Of a stretch of 22,486 nucleotides of DNA, positions 1 through 21,533 are shown in pieces (the stretch's first letter is position 1; the number at the start of each line of letters is the position of its first letter). This stretch comes from a virus. Where the stretch lies: the IMG/VR virus record IMGVR_UViG_3300035670_001328, positions 1-22,486 of that record; one strand, written 5' to 3'. A program made the position numbers and the translations under genes. The notes beneath the pieces are model-generated. The model searched no databases, was not told the DNA's origin, and saw only the letters and a program-made list of their open reading frames with translations.

Positions 1-133
1 AGCGTATGGCATTTGGGGCGGGCTAACCCCACACCAGCGAAACGAGATTCGTAAGGGCAAGACCACGCTAGAGAAGGCGTTAGGCCAGAACGCGGTTAGG
101 GTCGAGCGATTCAAGCTCGGTGCAATTCGATAA
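1..133 (+). CDS. whiB: WhiB-family transcriptional regulator, C-terminal fragment
   Basis: The 3' end of a plus-strand gene enters from the left edge (reading frame begins at base 2) and stops with TAA at 131-133. The 43 visible residues begin AYGIWGGLTPHQR, which carries the G-[IV]-W-G-G turn that follows the Fe-S cluster cysteines in WhiB-like proteins. A basic tail rich in Arg and Lys follows, as expected for the DNA-binding end. WhiB proteins are iron-sulfur regulators restricted to Actinobacteria and their phages, and they act with the primary sigma factor. The four cluster cysteines lie outside the window and could not be checked. It is the only plus-strand gene seen and converges on the late operon, so it probably belongs to an oppositely transcribed regulatory or early module. 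Family call is firm; its role here is inferred. Confidence 0.8.
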   Translation, partial: AYGIWGGLTPHQRNEIRKGKTTLEKALGQNAVRVERFKLGAIR

Positions 134-158
134 CCCCGCCAGGCTAAACCTGACGGGG
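134..158 (-). terminator. Terminator hairpin between whiB and the late operon
   Basis: Two 10-nt arms (134-143 and 149-158) surround a 5-nt loop. In minus-strand RNA all ten pairs form, one as G-U. In plus-strand RNA the same position is a C-A mismatch, so the structure appears built mainly for leftward transcripts. The following minus-strand bases are UUAUCG, a poor U tract. It directly abuts the whiB stop codon and may also serve that gene. Confidence 0.65.
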
Positions 159-180
159 GGCTTCATCTAAGAAGTGTTTT

Positions 181-194
181 GCCGACCGGCCGGC
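181..194 (-). other. GC-rich hairpin just 3' of the mini-tmRNA
   Basis: A 14-nt GC-only inverted repeat with a 4-bp GCCG/CGGC stem starts two bases after the discriminator A of the tRNA-like RNA. No U tract follows on the minus strand, so it is not a classical terminator. It could block 3' exonuclease trimming or mark a processing site. Confidence 0.35.
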
Positions 195-195
195 G

Positions 196-275
196 TGGAC
201 TTGCAGAGAATCGAACTCTGGTCTTAGTCGTTCCCACGTGGGGTTTTAGCGACTAATCGACACCGTTTCAAGCCC
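196..275 (-). ncRNA. Mini-tmRNA: tRNA-like domain of tmRNA without tag region
   Basis: This 80-nt RNA folds as the tRNA-like domain of tmRNA. The acceptor stem GGGCUUG/CAAGUCC (275-269 with 203-197) has a G-U pair at position 3-70, the AlaRS identity element, and discriminator A at 196. The D region has no stem and reads ACGGUGUCGA, close to the GGUUUCGAC signature of actinobacterial tmRNA 5' ends. A perfect 7-bp stem UUAGUCG/CGACUAA occupies the P2 position and encloses only 19 nt, where a true tmRNA has roughly 250-300 nt of tag and pseudoknots. GAC and then a T arm CAGAG-UUCGAUU-CUCUG complete it. CCA is not encoded. It does not fold as an ordinary tRNA because it lacks a D stem and a 7-nt anticodon loop. 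Read-through from the lysis genes would place it at the end of the late transcript. The structure is seen directly; charging with alanine and function are inferred. Confidence 0.8.
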
Positions 276-281
276 TAAGAA

Positions 282-300
282 GCCTACGCTAAACGTAGGC
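282..300 (-). terminator. Hairpin between lysis gene and mini-tmRNA
   Basis: A perfect 7-bp stem GCCUACG/CGUAGGC with a 5-nt loop lies 9 bases after the last lysis gene stop. It is followed on the minus strand by UUCUUA and then the first G of the tRNA-like RNA. The U tract is weak, so it may be a partial terminator or a processing barrier rather than a full stop. Confidence 0.45.
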
Positions 301-308
301 GCGAGAGT

Positions 309-318
309 TCTATTCTAC
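309..318 (-). repeat. Decamer GTAGAATAGA, copy 1 of 4
   Basis: The minus-strand decamer GTAGAATAGA occurs here and at 1113-1122, 11584-11593 and 18371-18380. Three copies overlap a stop codon at a gene end. The fourth lies near the 3' end of the large terminase gene. No function is known. Confidence 0.4.
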
Positions 319-666
319 GTCGTCCTTTGCGTTCGCGTCGTATAGATCGTCGTCGCCGTCGAAGTCCACGTCGTCGAAGTCGAAGTTGCCGTCCTGGGTG
401 ACCTTTAGTGCGTCCTCTACGGCTTCGCTGTCGCTCTTAGCCACGGCCGCGCGGTAGGCGTTCTGAATGTCGGAAAGTTCTAGGCTGCCTTTCCATGCAA
501 TAGCCACGCCGATAGTAGTTATGACTACCATAAAAGCCGACCCAATCCCGATAAGCGATCCCATAGCCCAATCGCCCGCGACTGCACCAATAGCGGTTCC
601 GCCGGCGGCCGTAGCCATGACTAGACCTAGTGAACGGACTAGAAGTTGCTTGATAGTTTCGCGCAT
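310..666 (-). CDS. Small membrane protein, holin candidate
   Basis: A 118-aa protein with two predicted hydrophobic stretches, about residues 10-30 (LGLVMATAAGGTAIGAVAG) and 36-57 (GSLIGIGSAFMVVITTIGVA). A soluble part follows, ending in a very acidic tail of Asp and Glu after residue 90. Two membrane spans, small size and position directly after the endolysin fit a holin that forms membrane lesions at lysis time. Its ATG overlaps the TAA of the endolysin gene as TAATG, so the two are translationally coupled. It is the last gene of the late operon. Holins have little sequence conservation, so the call rests on topology and context. A non-holin membrane protein cannot be excluded. Confidence 0.6.
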   Translation of the reverse strand: MRETIKQLLVRSLGLVMATAAGGTAIGAVAGDWAMGSLIGIGSAFMVVITTIGVAIAWKGSLELSDIQNAYRAAVAKSDSEAVEDALKVTQDGNFDFDDVDFDGDDDLYDANAKDDVE

Positions 667-1109
667 TAGTTTTCCTTTAGGTAGGCGATCGGGTCTTGCT
701 TTACGCTCGTTGGCCCAAAGACACCCTTTAGTTCTTTGCTTAGGGTTAGGTGTAGGTGCGCTCCCGAAGACGCTGATCCGCTAGGGGTCTTCTTACCGCC
801 GCCAACCTTGCCGATAATGTCGCCTTCTTTTACCTTCGTGCCAACTGCCAAGCCTGGTTCGGCTAGGTGGCAGAAACCGAAGTAGCGAATTTCCTTATCC
901 TTGCCCATTACACGAAGAACCGAAACGTTGCCTAGCACGTCGCTCCATTGTTGTAGAACGATAGTCCCGTTAGCCACCGAAGGAATCGGGGTGTTGTCTG
1001 GACGGCCAAAATCTACGCCGGAGTGCGGTTGCATACCACGGGACTTACGATACTCGGATAGAGTGCCGAAGCGGTCGGTGATGTATTTCGGGTCGAACGG
1101 GAAGCGCAT
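666..1109 (-). CDS. M23-family peptidase, probable endolysin
   Basis: A 147-aa zinc metallopeptidase of the LytM/lysostaphin M23 type, which cuts peptide cross-links of peptidoglycan. The metal ligands are visible: PHSGVDFG (about residues 28-35) supplies the His and Asp of the HxxxD motif, and GAHLHL (about residues 117-122) supplies the HxH pair. The middle shows the usual M23 features: PIPSVANGTIV, then a turn rich in Gly and GDIIGKVGGG. The protein is essentially only the catalytic domain. No signal peptide or separate cell-wall-binding domain is seen, so export probably depends on a holin. It lies between two small membrane-protein genes, a classic lysis cassette. A tail-associated murein hydrolase is the alternative, but the lysis context favours endolysin. 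Confidence 0.85.
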   Translation of the reverse strand: MRFPFDPKYITDRFGTLSEYRKSRGMQPHSGVDFGRPDNTPIPSVANGTIVLQQWSDVLGNVSVLRVMGKDKEIRYFGFCHLAEPGLAVGTKVKEGDIIGKVGGGKKTPSGSASSGAHLHLTLSKELKGVFGPTSVKQDPIAYLKEN

Positions 1110-1113
1110 AGGT

Positions 1114-1296
1114 CTATTCTACTTCGCGGTCGTAACGCAGCGGGAAGGTCAGAACCCAGACGAGAAGGGTTCCCAGGATTAGCCAGCCCGTTAGAGTGCG
1201 GGCCGTGCCTTCGAGAACGACATAACCTATAACTAATGCGACAAGCGTCCAAGCCTGATCGAGCAGGTCTTTCAATAGTGCCTTTACGAACTTCAC
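1114..1296 (-). CDS. Small two-span membrane protein, holin-like
   Basis: A 60-aa protein starting at GTG (1296). The start overlaps the TGA of the upstream gene as GTGA and follows a good Shine-Dalgarno AAGGA about 7 bases away. It has a short basic N-terminus and two hydrophobic segments: about residues 16-29 (TLVALVIGYVVLEG) and 37-52 (GWLILGTLLVWVLTFP). The end is charged (RYDREVE). It sits just before the endolysin gene. Size, topology and place suggest a holin or holin partner, but there is no family motif to prove it. With the 118-aa protein on the other side of the endolysin, the phage may use a two-component holin or a holin and antiholin pair. Confidence 0.6.
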   Translation of the reverse strand: MKFVKALLKDLLDQAWTLVALVIGYVVLEGTARTLTGWLILGTLLVWVLTFPLRYDREVE

Positions 1297-2345
1297 TTTA
1301 TCTTCCTTATTCCTGCCGCTACCTGACTAGCGATAACCGTCGATACGACAACATCTTGCGCTTCTTCGCGCTGTTCTGGGGTCATGTCCAAACCTGCCGT
1401 AGCAAACGCTTCTACTAATTCTCCCACGGCTTCGACGGCGGCTCCGATGGCTTGGGTAACGGTTGCTTCGATTGCGCTTGATACCGACTCGCTGAAAGTT
1501 TCTTCTGGGATTTGAGCAGCTTCCGTGGAAGTTGTAGTCGGTTCTTCATTTATACCTTCGCTAGACTGAACGGGTGTTGGCTCGATTACTTGCGGGGTTT
1601 GTGCTTCTGTCACTATGGGCAGGGGCGTTGGTTGCGCTATTGGTGATTCTGATTGTGTCGCTGTTTCGCCTGGGGTTGTGGGCGATTGCGTTGGTTCTGG
1701 TTCTGGCGATTGCGTCGGGGAACTTTCCGTTGGCGTTGGTGATGGTGTTGCTTCTGGGGTCGGTTCTGGCTGGACGGGTTCGGGGCTAGGTGAAGGTGCT
1801 GGCGAAGGTGGCTCTGGGCTTGGTAGCGGCTCTGGCGTTGGCGTTACTACCGTTGATTCTGACGCTGGGGATTCTGTCGTTTGTGTTTGAGTTTCTGCCG
1901 GCGGTGATGTAGTTGCGTCGCTTGATTGCGTTTCTGGGGATAGCGTTGTGGGTTCTATTGGTTGAGCTATGGGAGTCGCGGCGATCGTCATAATCGGGCC
2001 GTAGAATCCCGCCCAGAATCCGTGGTCGATACCCTCTAGCGTTAGCGTCTGGCTTCCGGTGATTGTAAAGACGTAATCCCTGGCCCCATGCTTCTCGGTT
2101 ACTTCGATTACCTGGTCGCCAAGCGTGATTCGGTAAGTGTCGATTACTTCCCCGCCATACCCGATTTTGTTTGTTATGTCGTTCACGACGGTAACGGTTA
2201 CGACCGAGTCGGTAAAGGTGCGGGTAACGCTGCCCCATTGGTAACTAAATTGTATGGTGTCGCCGTCTTGTCTAACGTCGGCATTTGCAGGGGTCGAGAA
2301 TAACCAGCCGAAAGCAAGAAGTAAGGCGATTAGGCCCCTACGCAT
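1293..2345 (-). CDS. Secreted proline-rich protein of the lysis region
   Basis: The chosen start is ATG at 2345, overlapping the upstream TAA as TAATG, because it opens with a clear signal peptide MRRGLIALLLAFGWLFSTPANA (residues 1-22). An open frame extends upstream but lacks such a feature. The 350-aa product continues with a beta-rich segment of about 95 residues (23-118). A long low-complexity stretch follows (about 125-270), made of Pro, Ser, Thr, Glu and Gln with many PSP, PTP and PEP triplets. Helical Ala- and Val-rich segments end the protein (about 280-348). The proline-rich part could act as an extended spacer through the cell wall. The product should be exported and possibly cell-wall spanning. 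I do not recognise the family. Position between fibre genes and endolysin suggests a role in lysis, superinfection exclusion or the envelope. Plus-strand DNA over this part is markedly G/T-rich. Confidence 0.7.
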   Translation of the reverse strand: MRRGLIALLLAFGWLFSTPANADVRQDGDTIQFSYQWGSVTRTFTDSVVTVTVVNDITNKIGYGGEVIDTYRITLGDQVIEVTEKHGARDYVFTITGSQTLTLEGIDHGFWAGFYGPIMTIAATPIAQPIEPTTLSPETQSSDATTSPPAETQTQTTESPASESTVVTPTPEPLPSPEPPSPAPSPSPEPVQPEPTPEATPSPTPTESSPTQSPEPEPTQSPTTPGETATQSESPIAQPTPLPIVTEAQTPQVIEPTPVQSSEGINEEPTTTSTEAAQIPEETFSESVSSAIEATVTQAIGAAVEAVGELVEAFATAGLDMTPEQREEAQDVVVSTVIASQVAAGIRKIK

Positions 2346-2557
2346 TAGAGCGCGTTGTAAATAGACGAAGCGACTGCGCCGATCACCGCGGACGCACCGG
2401 AGAACAACCACATACGACGTTCGAGCGCACGAATCCGTAGCTCGTGGTCTTTCATGTTGCGTTCGACCCAATCGACGTGAGTCGGAATTTTCTCGTTTAG
2501 TCGCTCTACCTGTTTGATTAGTTCAATAGCCCAGGTAGGGATTTGTTCGTCATTCAT
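2345..2557 (-). CDS. Small coiled-coil plus C-terminal membrane-anchor protein
   Basis: A 70-aa protein. The first 48 residues are charged and helical (QVERLNEKIPTHVDWVER, then DHELRIRALERR). The last part, about residues 49-68, is a single hydrophobic span (MWLFSGASAVIGAVASSIY). This layout resembles XhlA-type accessory lysis proteins, in which an amphipathic helix precedes a C-terminal membrane anchor, though no sequence match can be claimed. A GGAG Shine-Dalgarno lies about 8 bases before ATG 2557. The stop overlaps the start of the secreted proline-rich protein, so the two are probably co-translated. Likely a holin partner or lysis regulator; the function is uncertain. Confidence 0.55.
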   Translation of the reverse strand: MNDEQIPTWAIELIKQVERLNEKIPTHVDWVERNMKDHELRIRALERRMWLFSGASAVIGAVASSIYNAL

Positions 2558-2590
2558 TAGATACGCTCCGGAAGTCGCGTAGGTTTGTTA

Positions 2591-2827
2591 CTAGTTTACT
2601 AGAGCCTCGGCCTCGGCCTGAGTTAGCCCAAGTGCCAGAAGCTTCGCAATACCAGAAGCCTTTGCCTCTGCCTTTGCCGTTTCCTCGGCTTCACGAGCGG
2701 CCTGGTCTGCTAGTGCTTGTGCTGCCATTGCTTCACGCTCCTGAATCTCGGCCTCGGTCAAAGGAACGATAGTCCTTTCACCTGTTTCGCAGTTGATAAC
2801 TAGCTTGGTTGGGATTTCTTGAGTCAT
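2591..2827 (-). CDS. Small Ala/Glu-rich protein following the fibre genes
   Basis: A 78-aa protein. The N-terminus KLVINCETGERTIVPLT looks like a short beta hairpin. A long Ala/Glu helix follows (about 24-62, EIQEREAMAAQALADQAARE and so on). It ends with a short motif GIAKLLALGLTQAEAEALV resembling a helical hairpin. Proteins with this layout are frequent just after tail-fibre genes in tailed phages, where some are proposed fibre chaperones. Here it directly follows three fibre-type genes, which fits that idea. The DNA is internally repetitive (gcctcg and gcctttgcc runs) because of the Ala/Glu codons. The gene is secure; the role is unproven. Confidence 0.55.
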   Translation of the reverse strand: MTQEIPTKLVINCETGERTIVPLTEAEIQEREAMAAQALADQAAREAEETAKAEAKASGIAKLLALGLTQAEAEALVN

Positions 2828-2841
2828 TTCTTTTCTTTCTG

Positions 2842-3375
2842 TTAGCTAACTGTCGTTACGCCGTCTGAACCCTTTAGCACTCCGTAAAGGGTTGCGGAAG
2901 AATACTGCATTAGGTTGAAACCTGGGTCTTGAATCAAAATGCTAGTAATAGCTGCGGTGTTGCTCCACAAATTAGCAACAATGCTTAGACCCGTTGATGT
3001 TTCGTTGCTCTCGCCCACGCTATCGCCTGAACCTGTTTTGTAATTGCTCGAAGTGTAGTTGGGAATGTAAAGCGATCCGTTTCCGAAAGTGCTACCTGTC
3101 GCAGCGTTAGAAGTTTGGTAACCAAGCAAAAATGCGTCTGATCCGCTTCCGCTGTCCGACCCCGTAGCCAAGCTTGGAATTCCATAAAGCCTTCGATACG
3201 AATAGCCCGTTGTCACGCCATTGAACTGAACCGACAAGGTGTTTCTTGGCCCCTGATCAGTTCTTGTAGAGCGAGCAGAAACAACCAAATACAAATCTGT
3301 ATAAGTCTGTGGAATAGAACTAAAGGTAATGCTTGCCTGACTAGAAGCTAGTTCCTGATGTTGAATAACCTGCAT
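2842..3375 (-). CDS. Fibre-type virion protein, paralog 3
   Basis: A 177-aa beta-rich protein, third of three adjacent relatives. Shared landmarks are an early ASITFSSIPQTYTDLYL block (about residues 14-30), an Arg-rich strand SARSTRT, a LSVQFNG strand, and a C-terminal SSATLYGVLKG. Gly, Ser, Thr, Tyr and Asn dominate, as in secreted or virion beta-sandwich domains that bind sugars. It starts at ATG 3375, overlapping the TAA of the preceding paralog as TAATG. The likely role is a tail-tip or receptor-binding component, inferred from composition, repetition and position after the baseplate genes. It has the longest C-terminal tail of the three (KGSDGVTTVS). Its DNA carries a perfect 9-bp inverted repeat near the 3' end. 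Confidence 0.6.
   Translation of the reverse strand: MQVIQHQELASSQASITFSSIPQTYTDLYLVVSARSTRTDQGPRNTLSVQFNGVTTGYSYRRLYGIPSLATGSDSGSGSDAFLLGYQTSNAATGSTFGNGSLYIPNYTSSNYKTGSGDSVGESNETSTGLSIVANLWSNTAAITSILIQDPGFNLMQYSSATLYGVLKGSDGVTTVS
2868..2893. repeat. Perfect 9-bp inverted repeat inside a fibre gene
   Basis: AACCCTTTA (2868-2876) and TAAAGGGTT (2885-2893) are perfectly complementary around an 8-nt loop, inside the last codons of the third fibre paralog. No U tract follows on either strand, so termination is unlikely. It may be an RNA processing or stability element, or chance. Confidence 0.4.
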
Positions 3376-19839: not shown

Positions 19840-20281
19840 GTTGTTCCTTTCGTGCCATTAGTTCTTCGAGTTTTGACATGGCCTTTACTTCCGCTACGCC
19901 TAGTTTGCTTCTATCGCTTGGGGTAAATCCTAGTAGCGATAGGTTAGAAATAATTTGGCGATCTAGTTCTCGAAGGCCGCGGCGAAGTCTTGCGTCGTCA
20001 GTCTGCATTACTTTCACGCGTAGGTTCCAGCGTTCGTCAATCATTTCGCAGGTCATTAGCAAAATCTCAAAATCGGTATTAGGGCTAATCCAATTCAAGC
20101 CCTGTTCCCAAACCTTGTCCCATAACTCGCGACCGTATTTGAGTAGCGGCCGAGATGGTTCTGGAGTTTCCGAAACGCCTGGCAAAATTTGAAGCACGCC
20201 CTGTTCTGGCAACGGGCGACGGCCTGGATTACCAAGTAGTCGCTTTTGCTCTATCGGCTTTTGTGGTCTACCGGCTGGCAT
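19805..20281 (-). CDS. terS: Terminase small subunit, P27 family
   Basis: A 158-aa protein that recognises the packaging site and regulates the large subunit. The N-terminal GRPQKPIEQKRLLGNPGRRP (4-23) is the signature of P27-type small terminases. The rest is helical (DFEILLMTCEMIDERWNLRV) and includes LLGFTPSDRSKLGVAEVKAM, another family landmark. The GGAG site about 8 bases before ATG 20281 lies inside the end of the methyltransferase gene, with a 14-base overlap. Complete and normal in length. The cos or pac site is not identifiable by eye. Confidence 0.9.
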   Translation of the reverse strand: MPAGRPQKPIEQKRLLGNPGRRPLPEQGVLQILPGVSETPEPSRPLLKYGRELWDKVWEQGLNWISPNTDFEILLMTCEMIDERWNLRVKVMQTDDARLRRGLRELDRQIISNLSLLGFTPSDRSKLGVAEVKAMSKLEELMARKEQRVAPEVANSGS

Positions 20282-21533
20282 TGACTAACTCCGCCTTTTG
20301 GCCCGTTAGATTTTCCCAACGTTGGATAATAACGTCGCAGTATTTAGGGTCTAATTCAATAAGCGAAGCCTTTAGACCCAGCTGCTCGCAGGCGATCAAG
20401 GTAGAGCCGGAACCACCAAACGGGTCTAATACTCTATTGCCGCTAACCACACTGTTTTTTAGCAATTTAGCAACTAGAGCAATTGGCTTCATGGTTGGAT
20501 GAAGCTGGCTACTCTTTGGTCGCTTTTCCCTTACTACGCTGGTAGTTTCAAATGCGGATGTGAGGAACTCGATTAGTTCTTGCTTGCTGGCTTTTACCCA
20601 ATCACGTTTTTCAAATTCAACAACCGTTGTATTAGTAAATGGGCCATACCAAGAATGAGCTGCGCCTGGTTTCCAACCATAGAGTATTGGTTCGTGCTGC
20701 CAATTGTAATCTCGCCGGCCCAAAACTAAACTATCTTTTACCCAAATAATGCACTGCTTCAAAAGCCATCCAGCCTTTTCCATATTGTGTCGAAAAGCCT
20801 CGCCTGCGCTGTCGGCATGGCAAACATAAATAGGGCCACCCTCTTTGGTGTTTTCAACCGCTGCTTTGTAAAACTTAAAAAGAAATTCGTCGAATTGGGC
20901 ATCGTCCATATCGTCGCTTTTTATTGTCAGCTTTTCTTTTGTCTTACCAACATAAGCCACGTTATACGGAGGATCGGTAAAAACACAGTCGGCTAAATTT
21001 CCGTCTAGCGAAAGACTGATAACTCTTGCGTCGGTGCTATCTCCACAAACGAGACGGTGCTGACCTAATTGCCAAATGTCGCCCAATTGTGCAGTAGGTG
21101 TATCTGACAATTCTGGGGCTTCGTCCTCAAAGGTTTCAATGTCAATGAGTGGAATCTCTGGAACCTCAAAACCAAAGCCGGCAACCTGAATTCCGACTTC
21201 ATCTAGTTCGCGAAGTTGTTGCTCTAGCACTTCCTGGTTCCAAGTAGCTAACTCTGCCGTGCGGTTATCTGCTAGGGCAAAAGCCTTTATGCGATCAGCG
21301 TCCCAATCTGCCGGAACCCTTACCGCCTCAATCTCCGTCCAGCCCAGGGCCTTAGCCGCAGTGACGGTTCCGTTGCCGGCGACTATGACGTTGTTCTGAT
21401 CTATGACTATTGGCTTGCGCTGGCCGAACTCTTGTAGGCTGCCTTCGATTGCCTTTAGGTTTTTATCATCGTGAGCGCGAGCGTTGTTTGGGTCGAGCGT
21501 TAGTTTCTCGATGGCAATTTTTTCAAGCTTCAT
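20268..21533 (-). CDS. ParB-domain/DNA methyltransferase fusion
   Basis: A 421-aa fusion. Residues 1-90 form a ParB/Srx-like domain with NNARAHDDKNLKAIEGSLQE, and VIVAGNGTVTAAKALGW where the nucleotide-binding GNG replaces the more usual GHxR. Residues about 150-420 are a class beta amino-methyltransferase: motif IV TDPPYNV (DPPY 187-190), then a target-recognition part, HPTMKPIALVAKLLKNS, and motif I DPFGGSGSTLIACEQLG (370-386). DPPY favours N6-adenine methylation, although N4-cytosine is possible. Such fusions are common on phages and probably protect phage DNA from host restriction. No partner endonuclease is adjacent. The central part looks more AT-rich than its neighbours, suggesting a separate origin. 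Confidence 0.92.
   Translation of the reverse strand: MKLEKIAIEKLTLDPNNARAHDDKNLKAIEGSLQEFGQRKPIVIDQNNVIVAGNGTVTAAKALGWTEIEAVRVPADWDADRIKAFALADNRTAELATWNQEVLEQQLRELDEVGIQVAGFGFEVPEIPLIDIETFEDEAPELSDTPTAQLGDIWQLGQHRLVCGDSTDARVISLSLDGNLADCVFTDPPYNVAYVGKTKEKLTIKSDDMDDAQFDEFLFKFYKAAVENTKEGGPIYVCHADSAGEAFRHNMEKAGWLLKQCIIWVKDSLVLGRRDYNWQHEPILYGWKPGAAHSWYGPFTNTTVVEFEKRDWVKASKQELIEFLTSAFETTSVVREKRPKSSQLHPTMKPIALVAKLLKNSVVSGNRVLDPFGGSGSTLIACEQLGLKASLIELDPKYCDVIIQRWENLTGQKAELVNASR

What the first reader, a model, noticed from the sequence alone, without database searches (positions are those of the whole stretch)
196..275. An 80-nt tmRNA-like RNA with no tag region
The element has the 5' and 3' ends of a tmRNA: acceptor stem with G3-U70 and A73, stemless D loop ACGGUGUCGA, perfect 7-bp P2 stem, GAC, and T arm. 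A 19-nt loop stands where the tag reading frame and pseudoknots should be. Real tmRNAs are several times longer. G3-U70 is the recognised AlaRS determinant, so alanine charging is expected. A charged or uncharged mini-tmRNA could bind SmpB or AlaRS and block or redirect trans-translation late in infection. Function is inference; the fold is directly visible.
Basis: partly seen in the sequence, partly recalled or inferred. Interest (0 to 1): 0.9.

Follow-up and report, generated by a model that had tools for sequence, protein, structure and literature searches.

The report
Phage mini-tmRNA without tag region
This phage carries an 80-nt RNA gene that is the tRNA-like half of the bacterial ribosome-rescue RNA (tmRNA) with its message part removed; it belongs to a widespread, strongly conserved phage RNA family, previously noted in one phage, that probably interferes with the host's ribosome rescue.

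Summary
On the minus strand (275..196) lies a complete tmRNA tRNA-like domain: 7-bp acceptor with G3·U70 and A73, stemless D loop, perfect 7-bp P2, GAC, T arm, and a 19-nt cap instead of the tag frame and pseudoknots. It is not chance. A covariance model trained only on other phages finds it at 64 bits (E 7e-14). I found about 150 distinct relatives in phage contigs, and roughly 440 contigs are estimated. Their T stem, acceptor and P2 covary strongly. In scans that did not impose it, every intact member has G3·U70. Rfam's tmRNA model hits most relatives above cut-off with its middle deleted; ARAGORN misses them. Sequenced phages (BRock, LuckySocke, phiPsal1) carry it unannotated. The kind is already known, from mycobacteriophage DS6A ("TLD only", PMC4131195; PMC11915505). 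Expression of such a form inhibited E. coli tmRNA. What is new is its breadth, conserved cap, strict alanine identity, occurrence in tRNA arrays or late operons, movement between genome positions, and coexistence with full phage tmRNAs. The best mechanism is an alanylated, SmpB-binding dominant-negative of host trans-translation (about 0.5). A tagless rescue RNA is the main rival. No expression evidence was available.

The parts
196..275 (-). mini-tmRNA (TLD-only tmRNA), 80 nt, 5' end at 275
   Evidence: (64.1 bits with a model from other phages)
269..275 (-). acceptor stem 5' strand GGGCUUG
   Evidence: pairs with 197-203; G3·U70; covarying pairs 4-7
257..268 (-). stemless D loop AAACGGUGUCGA
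   Evidence: GGNNUCGA conserved as in tmRNA; nearly always present in a scan that did not impose it
250..256 (-). P2 5' strand UUAGUCG
   Evidence: 7 perfect pairs; all 7 covary in the sublineage
231..249 (-). 19-nt cap CUAAAACCCCACGUGGGAA in place of tag frame and pseudoknots
   Evidence: family consensus AAARCCGCAYGCGGA, 3-bp CCG/CGG hairpin with CNNG loop
224..230 (-). P2 3' strand CGACUAA
221..223 (-). GAC before the T arm
   Evidence: direct reading; tmRNA signature
204..220 (-). T arm CAGAG-UUCGAUU-CUCUG
   Evidence: T stem paired in 102/102 distinct relatives
196..203 (-). acceptor 3' strand CAAGUCC and discriminator A73
   Evidence: U70 and A73 invariant
310..666 (-). holin-like gene directly upstream, same strand
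   Evidence: no PHROG match, homologues; lies between lysin and mini-tmRNA, also in L003, L008, L088
666..1109 (-). M23-type endolysin, end of late operon
   Evidence: PHROG endolysin/endopeptidase hits
2..133 (+). C-terminal end of a WhiB-like gene, convergent with the mini-tmRNA
   Evidence: GIWGG motif; Whib Pfam hits at the same place in G001

Best explanation
It is a phage-encoded tmRNA reduced to the tRNA-like domain plus a capped P2 stem. It is probably transcribed at the end of the late operon, trimmed like a tRNA, given CCA, and charged with alanine by host AlaRS through G3·U70. It binds SmpB (and EF-Tu) as full tmRNA does, but having no resume codon it cannot place a tag. It therefore competes with host tmRNA for SmpB and stalled ribosomes and acts as a dominant-negative of trans-translation, protecting phage proteins or mRNA from tagging and decay. 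Shown: fold, homology to tmRNA, conservation, context. Inferred: transcription, charging, SmpB binding, inhibition.
For: Structure and homology: R1 hit E 6.9e-14; covariation score 0.73-0.76 against 0.17-0.19 shuffled, 0/500; 102 distinct viral sequences with T stem 102/102 and acceptor pairs 4-7 at 97-99% paired. Rfam RF00023 above cut-off in 35 of 52 phage records, nearly all 78-83-nt copies spanning model 1-374; 10 of 17 loci. Alanine identity: G3·U70 and A73 in all 56 real hits, and in 50 of 51 real new loci, the exception having an acceptor indel. tRNA-like processing: 216 of 217 neighbouring tRNA genes on the same strand; the mini encodes CCA mainly where the phage's tRNAs do (Fisher p 0.005, 23 loci). 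Precedent: PMC4131195 says a TLD-only molecule, chargeable or not, strongly inhibits tmRNA, perhaps by titrating SmpB, and PMC11915505 says the DS6A form inhibits E. coli tmRNA; a truncated tmRNA with SmpB and EF-Tu was crystallised on the ribosome (PMC8363625). Hosts keep full tmRNA: 113 of 119 genomes of one actinobacterial order.
Against: Invariant G3·U70 is more than SmpB titration needs, since the reported inhibitor worked charged or uncharged. Two phage contigs (G020, G024) also carry a full tmRNA with a predicted tag frame, which a pure inhibitor would be expected to poison. No expression, charging or binding data. The DS6A sequence was not in the collections, so it was not compared.
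Confidence: 0.5

Rival explanations
1. Tagless rescue RNA. The charged mini-tmRNA with SmpB enters stalled ribosomes and takes over the nascent chain on alanine; the ribosome is then freed by another route without a tag. It helps rather than blocks rescue during infection.
For: Invariant G3·U70, A73 and CCA coupling suggest the charged form matters. CDS-less tmRNAs are retained with SmpB in some mitochondria, and ~65-bp forms occur in Mallomonadaceae plastids (PMC11915505). Two phages carry both forms.
Against: Reported inhibition when expressed in E. coli (PMC11915505). With no codon to follow, it is unclear how the ribosome would be released.
Confidence: 0.25
2. Transcript punctuation. The tRNA-like fold is a cut site for RNase P and 3' processing enzymes that separates late mRNAs, such as the capsid message.
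For: Often same-strand between genes: between head protease and capsid in about a dozen phages including phiPsal1, and after the lysis genes here.
Against: Does not require invariant G3·U70 or the tmRNA-specific D loop, GAC and P2; also found inside tRNA arrays and downstream of the last late gene.
Confidence: 0.1
3. Alanine-related role off the ribosome: AlaRS decoy or alanine donor for another reaction.
For: Alanine identity elements are invariant.
Against: A minihelix would suffice; the tmRNA-specific D loop, GAC and P2 are also kept.
Confidence: 0.08
4. Relic of integration at a host tmRNA gene (attP core or deletion remnant), without function of its own.
For: tmRNA genes are common integration sites (established knowledge; PMC11915505).
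Against: attP cores carry only the 3' end; here 5' end, P2 and a phage-specific cap are kept with compensatory changes. No integrase family hit among the ten non-structural G001 ORFs tested (incomplete). Best host 3' match only 23 of 28 nt with 11 host tmRNAs. The element sits at different places in related phages.
Confidence: 0.03

Closest known systems
Mycobacteriophage DS6A tmRNA (TLD only), tmID 11587
   Same: [quoted passage not shown] proposed inhibitor of host tmRNA (PMC4131195, PMC11915505).
   Different: Only that one phage is named in the papers found.
Standard bacterial tmRNA (ssrA, Rfam RF00023)
   Same: Acceptor with G3·U70 and A73, GGNNUCGA D loop, P2, GAC, T arm; relatives score above Rfam's cut-off.
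   Different: No mRNA-like domain, tag frame or pseudoknots; about 80 nt instead of 350-400 nt.
CDS-less organellar tmRNAs (mitochondria; ~65 bp in Mallomonadaceae plastids)
   Same: tmRNA homologues without tag frame, retained in evolution (PMC11915505).
   Different: Organellar reduction, no phage context; cap not compared.
Truncated tmRNA construct used for ribosome crystal structure
   Same: [quoted passage not shown]
   Different: Engineered laboratory construct, not a natural gene.

Membership tests
tmRNA (RF00023) | homology of both ends to tmRNA by covariance model | tested here: met
   Window itself below threshold, but sister copies in G001/G002 at E 6e-19 and 2e-18 (just under cut-off) and 35 of 52 phage records above cut-off
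tmRNA (RF00023) | tag reading frame with resume codon and stop | tested here: not met
   Only a 19-nt cap between the P2 strands; caps short throughout the family
tmRNA (RF00023) | pseudoknots | tested here: not met
   no sequence for them; 80 nt in all
TLD-only phage tmRNA (DS6A kind) | little more than the tRNA-like domain, phage-encoded | tested here: met
   window is a virus record
TLD-only phage tmRNA (DS6A kind) | alanine identity G3·U70, A73 | tested here: met
   direct reading; invariant in scans that did not impose it
TLD-only phage tmRNA (DS6A kind) | inhibits endogenous tmRNA | not testable with these tools
   literature only
TLD-only phage tmRNA (DS6A kind) | sequence relation to DS6A | not tested
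   DS6A record not in the collection
canonical tRNA | D stem and 7-nt anticodon loop | tested here: not met
   no D stem, 7-bp P2 with 19-nt loop; tRNA score 14.6 against 29 bits; no ARAGORN call
two-piece (permuted) tmRNA acceptor piece | permuted order with separate coding piece nearby | tested here: not met
   order 5'-acceptor..P2..T arm is the standard one; no second piece found by Rfam in the window

The most novel reading that the evidence does not exclude
A large, previously unrecognised phage RNA family of alanylated, tagless mini-tmRNAs with its own conserved cap that reprogrammes ribosome rescue during infection, for example by ending rescue with a single alanine instead of a degradation tag. 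In some phages it works alongside a full phage tmRNA, so that it is an active rescue variant rather than a decoy.
Probability: 0.2. Interest if true: 0.9.

Novelty: new member of a known kind. Interest (0 to 1): 0.72.

Why it matters
A form that the two tmRNA papers found here name in one phage turns out to be a widespread phage RNA gene family that ARAGORN and genome annotation miss. It points to ribosome rescue as a recurrent target of phages, and gives isolated phage-host pairs (phiPsal1 on Pontimonas, LuckySocke and BRock on Streptomyces) in which this can be tested directly.

Tried and rejected
blastn of window 1-3000 against isolated phages gave nothing. A narrow T-arm pattern in viral contigs gave nothing. 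A first acceptor-offset script error was corrected. G3·U70 in the set is imposed by the pattern, so it was not used; it was re-measured. MAFFT misplaces the acceptor when D-loop length varies (A1), so ungapped length classes were used (A3, A4). The window gap between protease and capsid holds no second copy. Rhodococcus phage Dorin tRNA-Ala and Stenotrophomonas phage Summit 'tRNA-OTHER' T-arm hits are ordinary tRNAs. 'Protein-coding conservation' was rejected because of the covariation. The 1-in-396 count of R1 in genomes of one order scored only 12 candidates per genome and is a lower bound. The Mao et al. 2009 paper was not held, so its result is taken from two later papers. DS6A could not be fetched.

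Full report
What is in the sequence. The window is a 22,486-base virus record whose genes nearly all run on the minus strand: terminase, portal, head protease, capsid, glycosyltransferase, tail genes, M23-type endolysin, holin-like protein. Just after the holin-like gene, at 275..196 on the same strand, lies the reported element. It reads GGGCUUG AAACGGUGUCGA UUAGUCG CUAAAACCCCACGUGGGAA CGACUAA GAC CAGAG UUCGAUU CUCUG CAAGUCC A: perfect 7-bp acceptor with G3·U70, stemless D loop, perfect 7-bp P2, GAC, 5-bp T stem with a standard T loop, A73. CCA is not encoded. A convergent WhiB-like gene ends at 133 on the other strand.

Is it more than chance? Alone it is not decisive: fold z -1.8, no ARAGORN call, no Rfam tmRNA hit. 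Relatives decide. Of 51 lysin relatives, L003 has the element almost unchanged and L008 has it with compensatory changes in P2 and the T stem, at the same place. Close relatives L002, L004 and L005 have other sequence there, so the element comes and goes as a unit.

A family. A pattern of D loop, GAC and T loop found the same RNA in unrelated phages. A third pattern built on the cap gave 56 loci, all but one real, 15 of them among the 120, which puts the number of viral contigs matching the general pattern near 440 (rough capture-recapture). Script 74 counted 149 distinct sequences. Pairing not imposed by the patterns is near perfect: T stem 102/102, acceptor pairs 4-7 at 99-101 of 102, P2 pairs 1-6 at 95-101 of 102, against about half by shuffling for the variable pairs. 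On unfitted alignments the covariation score is 0.73 (A3) and 0.76 (A4, the window's own length class) against 0.17 and 0.19 shuffled, with 0 of 500 shuffles reaching it. Model R1, built from 20 sequences of other phages, finds the window copy at 64.1 bits, E 6.9e-14, and L008 at 80 bits; full tmRNAs score 32 bits or less and minis 51 or more.

Relation to tmRNA. Rfam's tmRNA model passes its cut-off in 10 of 17 loci and 35 of 52 phage records, nearly all as 78-83-nt copies spanning model 1-374 with the middle missing. The window copy itself is below threshold; its sisters in G001 and G002 are just under it. Host tmRNAs of one actinobacterial order are about 354-400 nt in 113 of 119 genomes. 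Ten or more bacterial genomes holding a mini also have their own full tmRNA. So the RNA is tmRNA by descent but lacks the tag frame and pseudoknots that define tmRNA function.

Alanine identity. Scans that did not impose the acceptor found G3·U70 and A73 in every real hit (56 of 57 rows, the odd one being a false hit), and in 50 of 51 real new hits, the exception having an indel in the acceptor. This argues that charging with alanine matters, which simple SmpB titration would not need.

Context. On loci that also hold tRNA genes, 216 of 217 neighbouring tRNAs are on the same strand; the mini encodes CCA mainly where the tRNAs do (6 of 7 against 3 of 16 loci, p 0.005). In Streptomyces phages LuckySocke and BRock it lies unannotated inside tRNA arrays. 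In about a dozen phages, including Pontimonas phage phiPsal1, it lies between head protease and capsid genes. These phages have capsid, protease and portal proteins mostly 40-65% identical to those of the window phage, which has the RNA instead after the lysis genes. L171, of the between-protease-and-capsid type, has the same P2 and T stem as the window copy. The RNA has therefore moved within one phage group while staying in the late region. Other copies sit beside replication genes. One genome copy (Parafrankia L293) is flanked by terminase- and portal-like genes, i.e. a prophage.

Two phages with both forms. Contigs G020 (98.8 kb) and G024 (123.6 kb) carry a full tmRNA with a predicted tag frame and a mini. 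A plain inhibitor would be expected to hurt the phage's own tmRNA, so this is a real difficulty for the decoy reading, or a sign that the two act at different times.

Prior knowledge. Hudson, Lau and Williams 2014 (PMC4131195) list mycobacteriophage DS6A as 'TLD only' and say such a molecule, chargeable or not, strongly inhibits tmRNA, perhaps by titrating SmpB (citing Mao et al. 2009, not held). Nawrocki, Petrov and Williams 2025 (PMC11915505) repeat DS6A, add ~65-bp plastid forms, and note CDS-less mitochondrial tmRNAs. Further searches found no report of a wider phage family, but only open-licence papers were searched. A truncated tmRNA with SmpB and EF-Tu has been crystallised on the ribosome (cited in PMC8363625).

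Mechanism. Most likely: transcribed with the late genes, trimmed and CCA-completed like a tRNA, alanylated, bound by SmpB, and competing with host tmRNA as a dominant-negative. Fold, homology, conservation and context are shown; transcription, charging, binding and effect are inferred. The main rival is a tagless rescue RNA that hands the nascent chain to alanine. Punctuation of the late transcript, an AlaRS or alanine-donor role, and an attP relic are less likely for the reasons given in the rival list.

Verdict. Observation confirmed; interpretation partly supported; new member of a known kind, but with a large and testable extension of that kind.

Noticed in passing
L002:3800-3945 (also L004, L005, L118, L123, L135): In close relatives lacking the mini-tmRNA, the same place (after the holin-like gene) holds a different conserved non-coding stretch (GGTTTAGGTCACACTTCGCTTYGGTGAACTTAAGATAGCC); no Rfam match, fold z -1.5.
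   Followed up: partly
L337:1939-2027 (Microbacterium phage Quenya; related T-arm hits in Dismas, Kieran and others): Divergent tmRNA-end-like RNA GGGCCTG...CAGGTCCA with G3·U70, 34 bits with R1, next to tRNA-Gln and unannotated; a possible longer variant of the family.
   Followed up: partly
L341:1437-1529 (Salinibacter phage SRUTV-1): Weak R1 match (28.7 bits, E 2.5e-4) ending in GGACATGGGTTCGACTCCCATCCGGTCCA; possible divergent relative, between hypothetical genes.
   Followed up: no
G040 (record of L212 and L384, 135,953 nt), 42520-42602 and 109671-109753: One phage contig with two different mini-tmRNAs.
   Followed up: no
G020:C1:88065-88440 and G024:C1:77588-77979: Phage contigs with a full-length tmRNA (G020 predicted tag ANNIVRFEDFTACGEELALAA) besides a mini-tmRNA.
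   Followed up: yes
window 134-158: Hairpin CCCCGCCAGG/CCTGACGGGG just downstream of the mini-tmRNA, a possible late transcript end; not called by the terminator scan.
   Followed up: no
window 20268-21533: Fused ParB-like nuclease and DNA methyltransferase upstream of the terminase genes.
   Followed up: no
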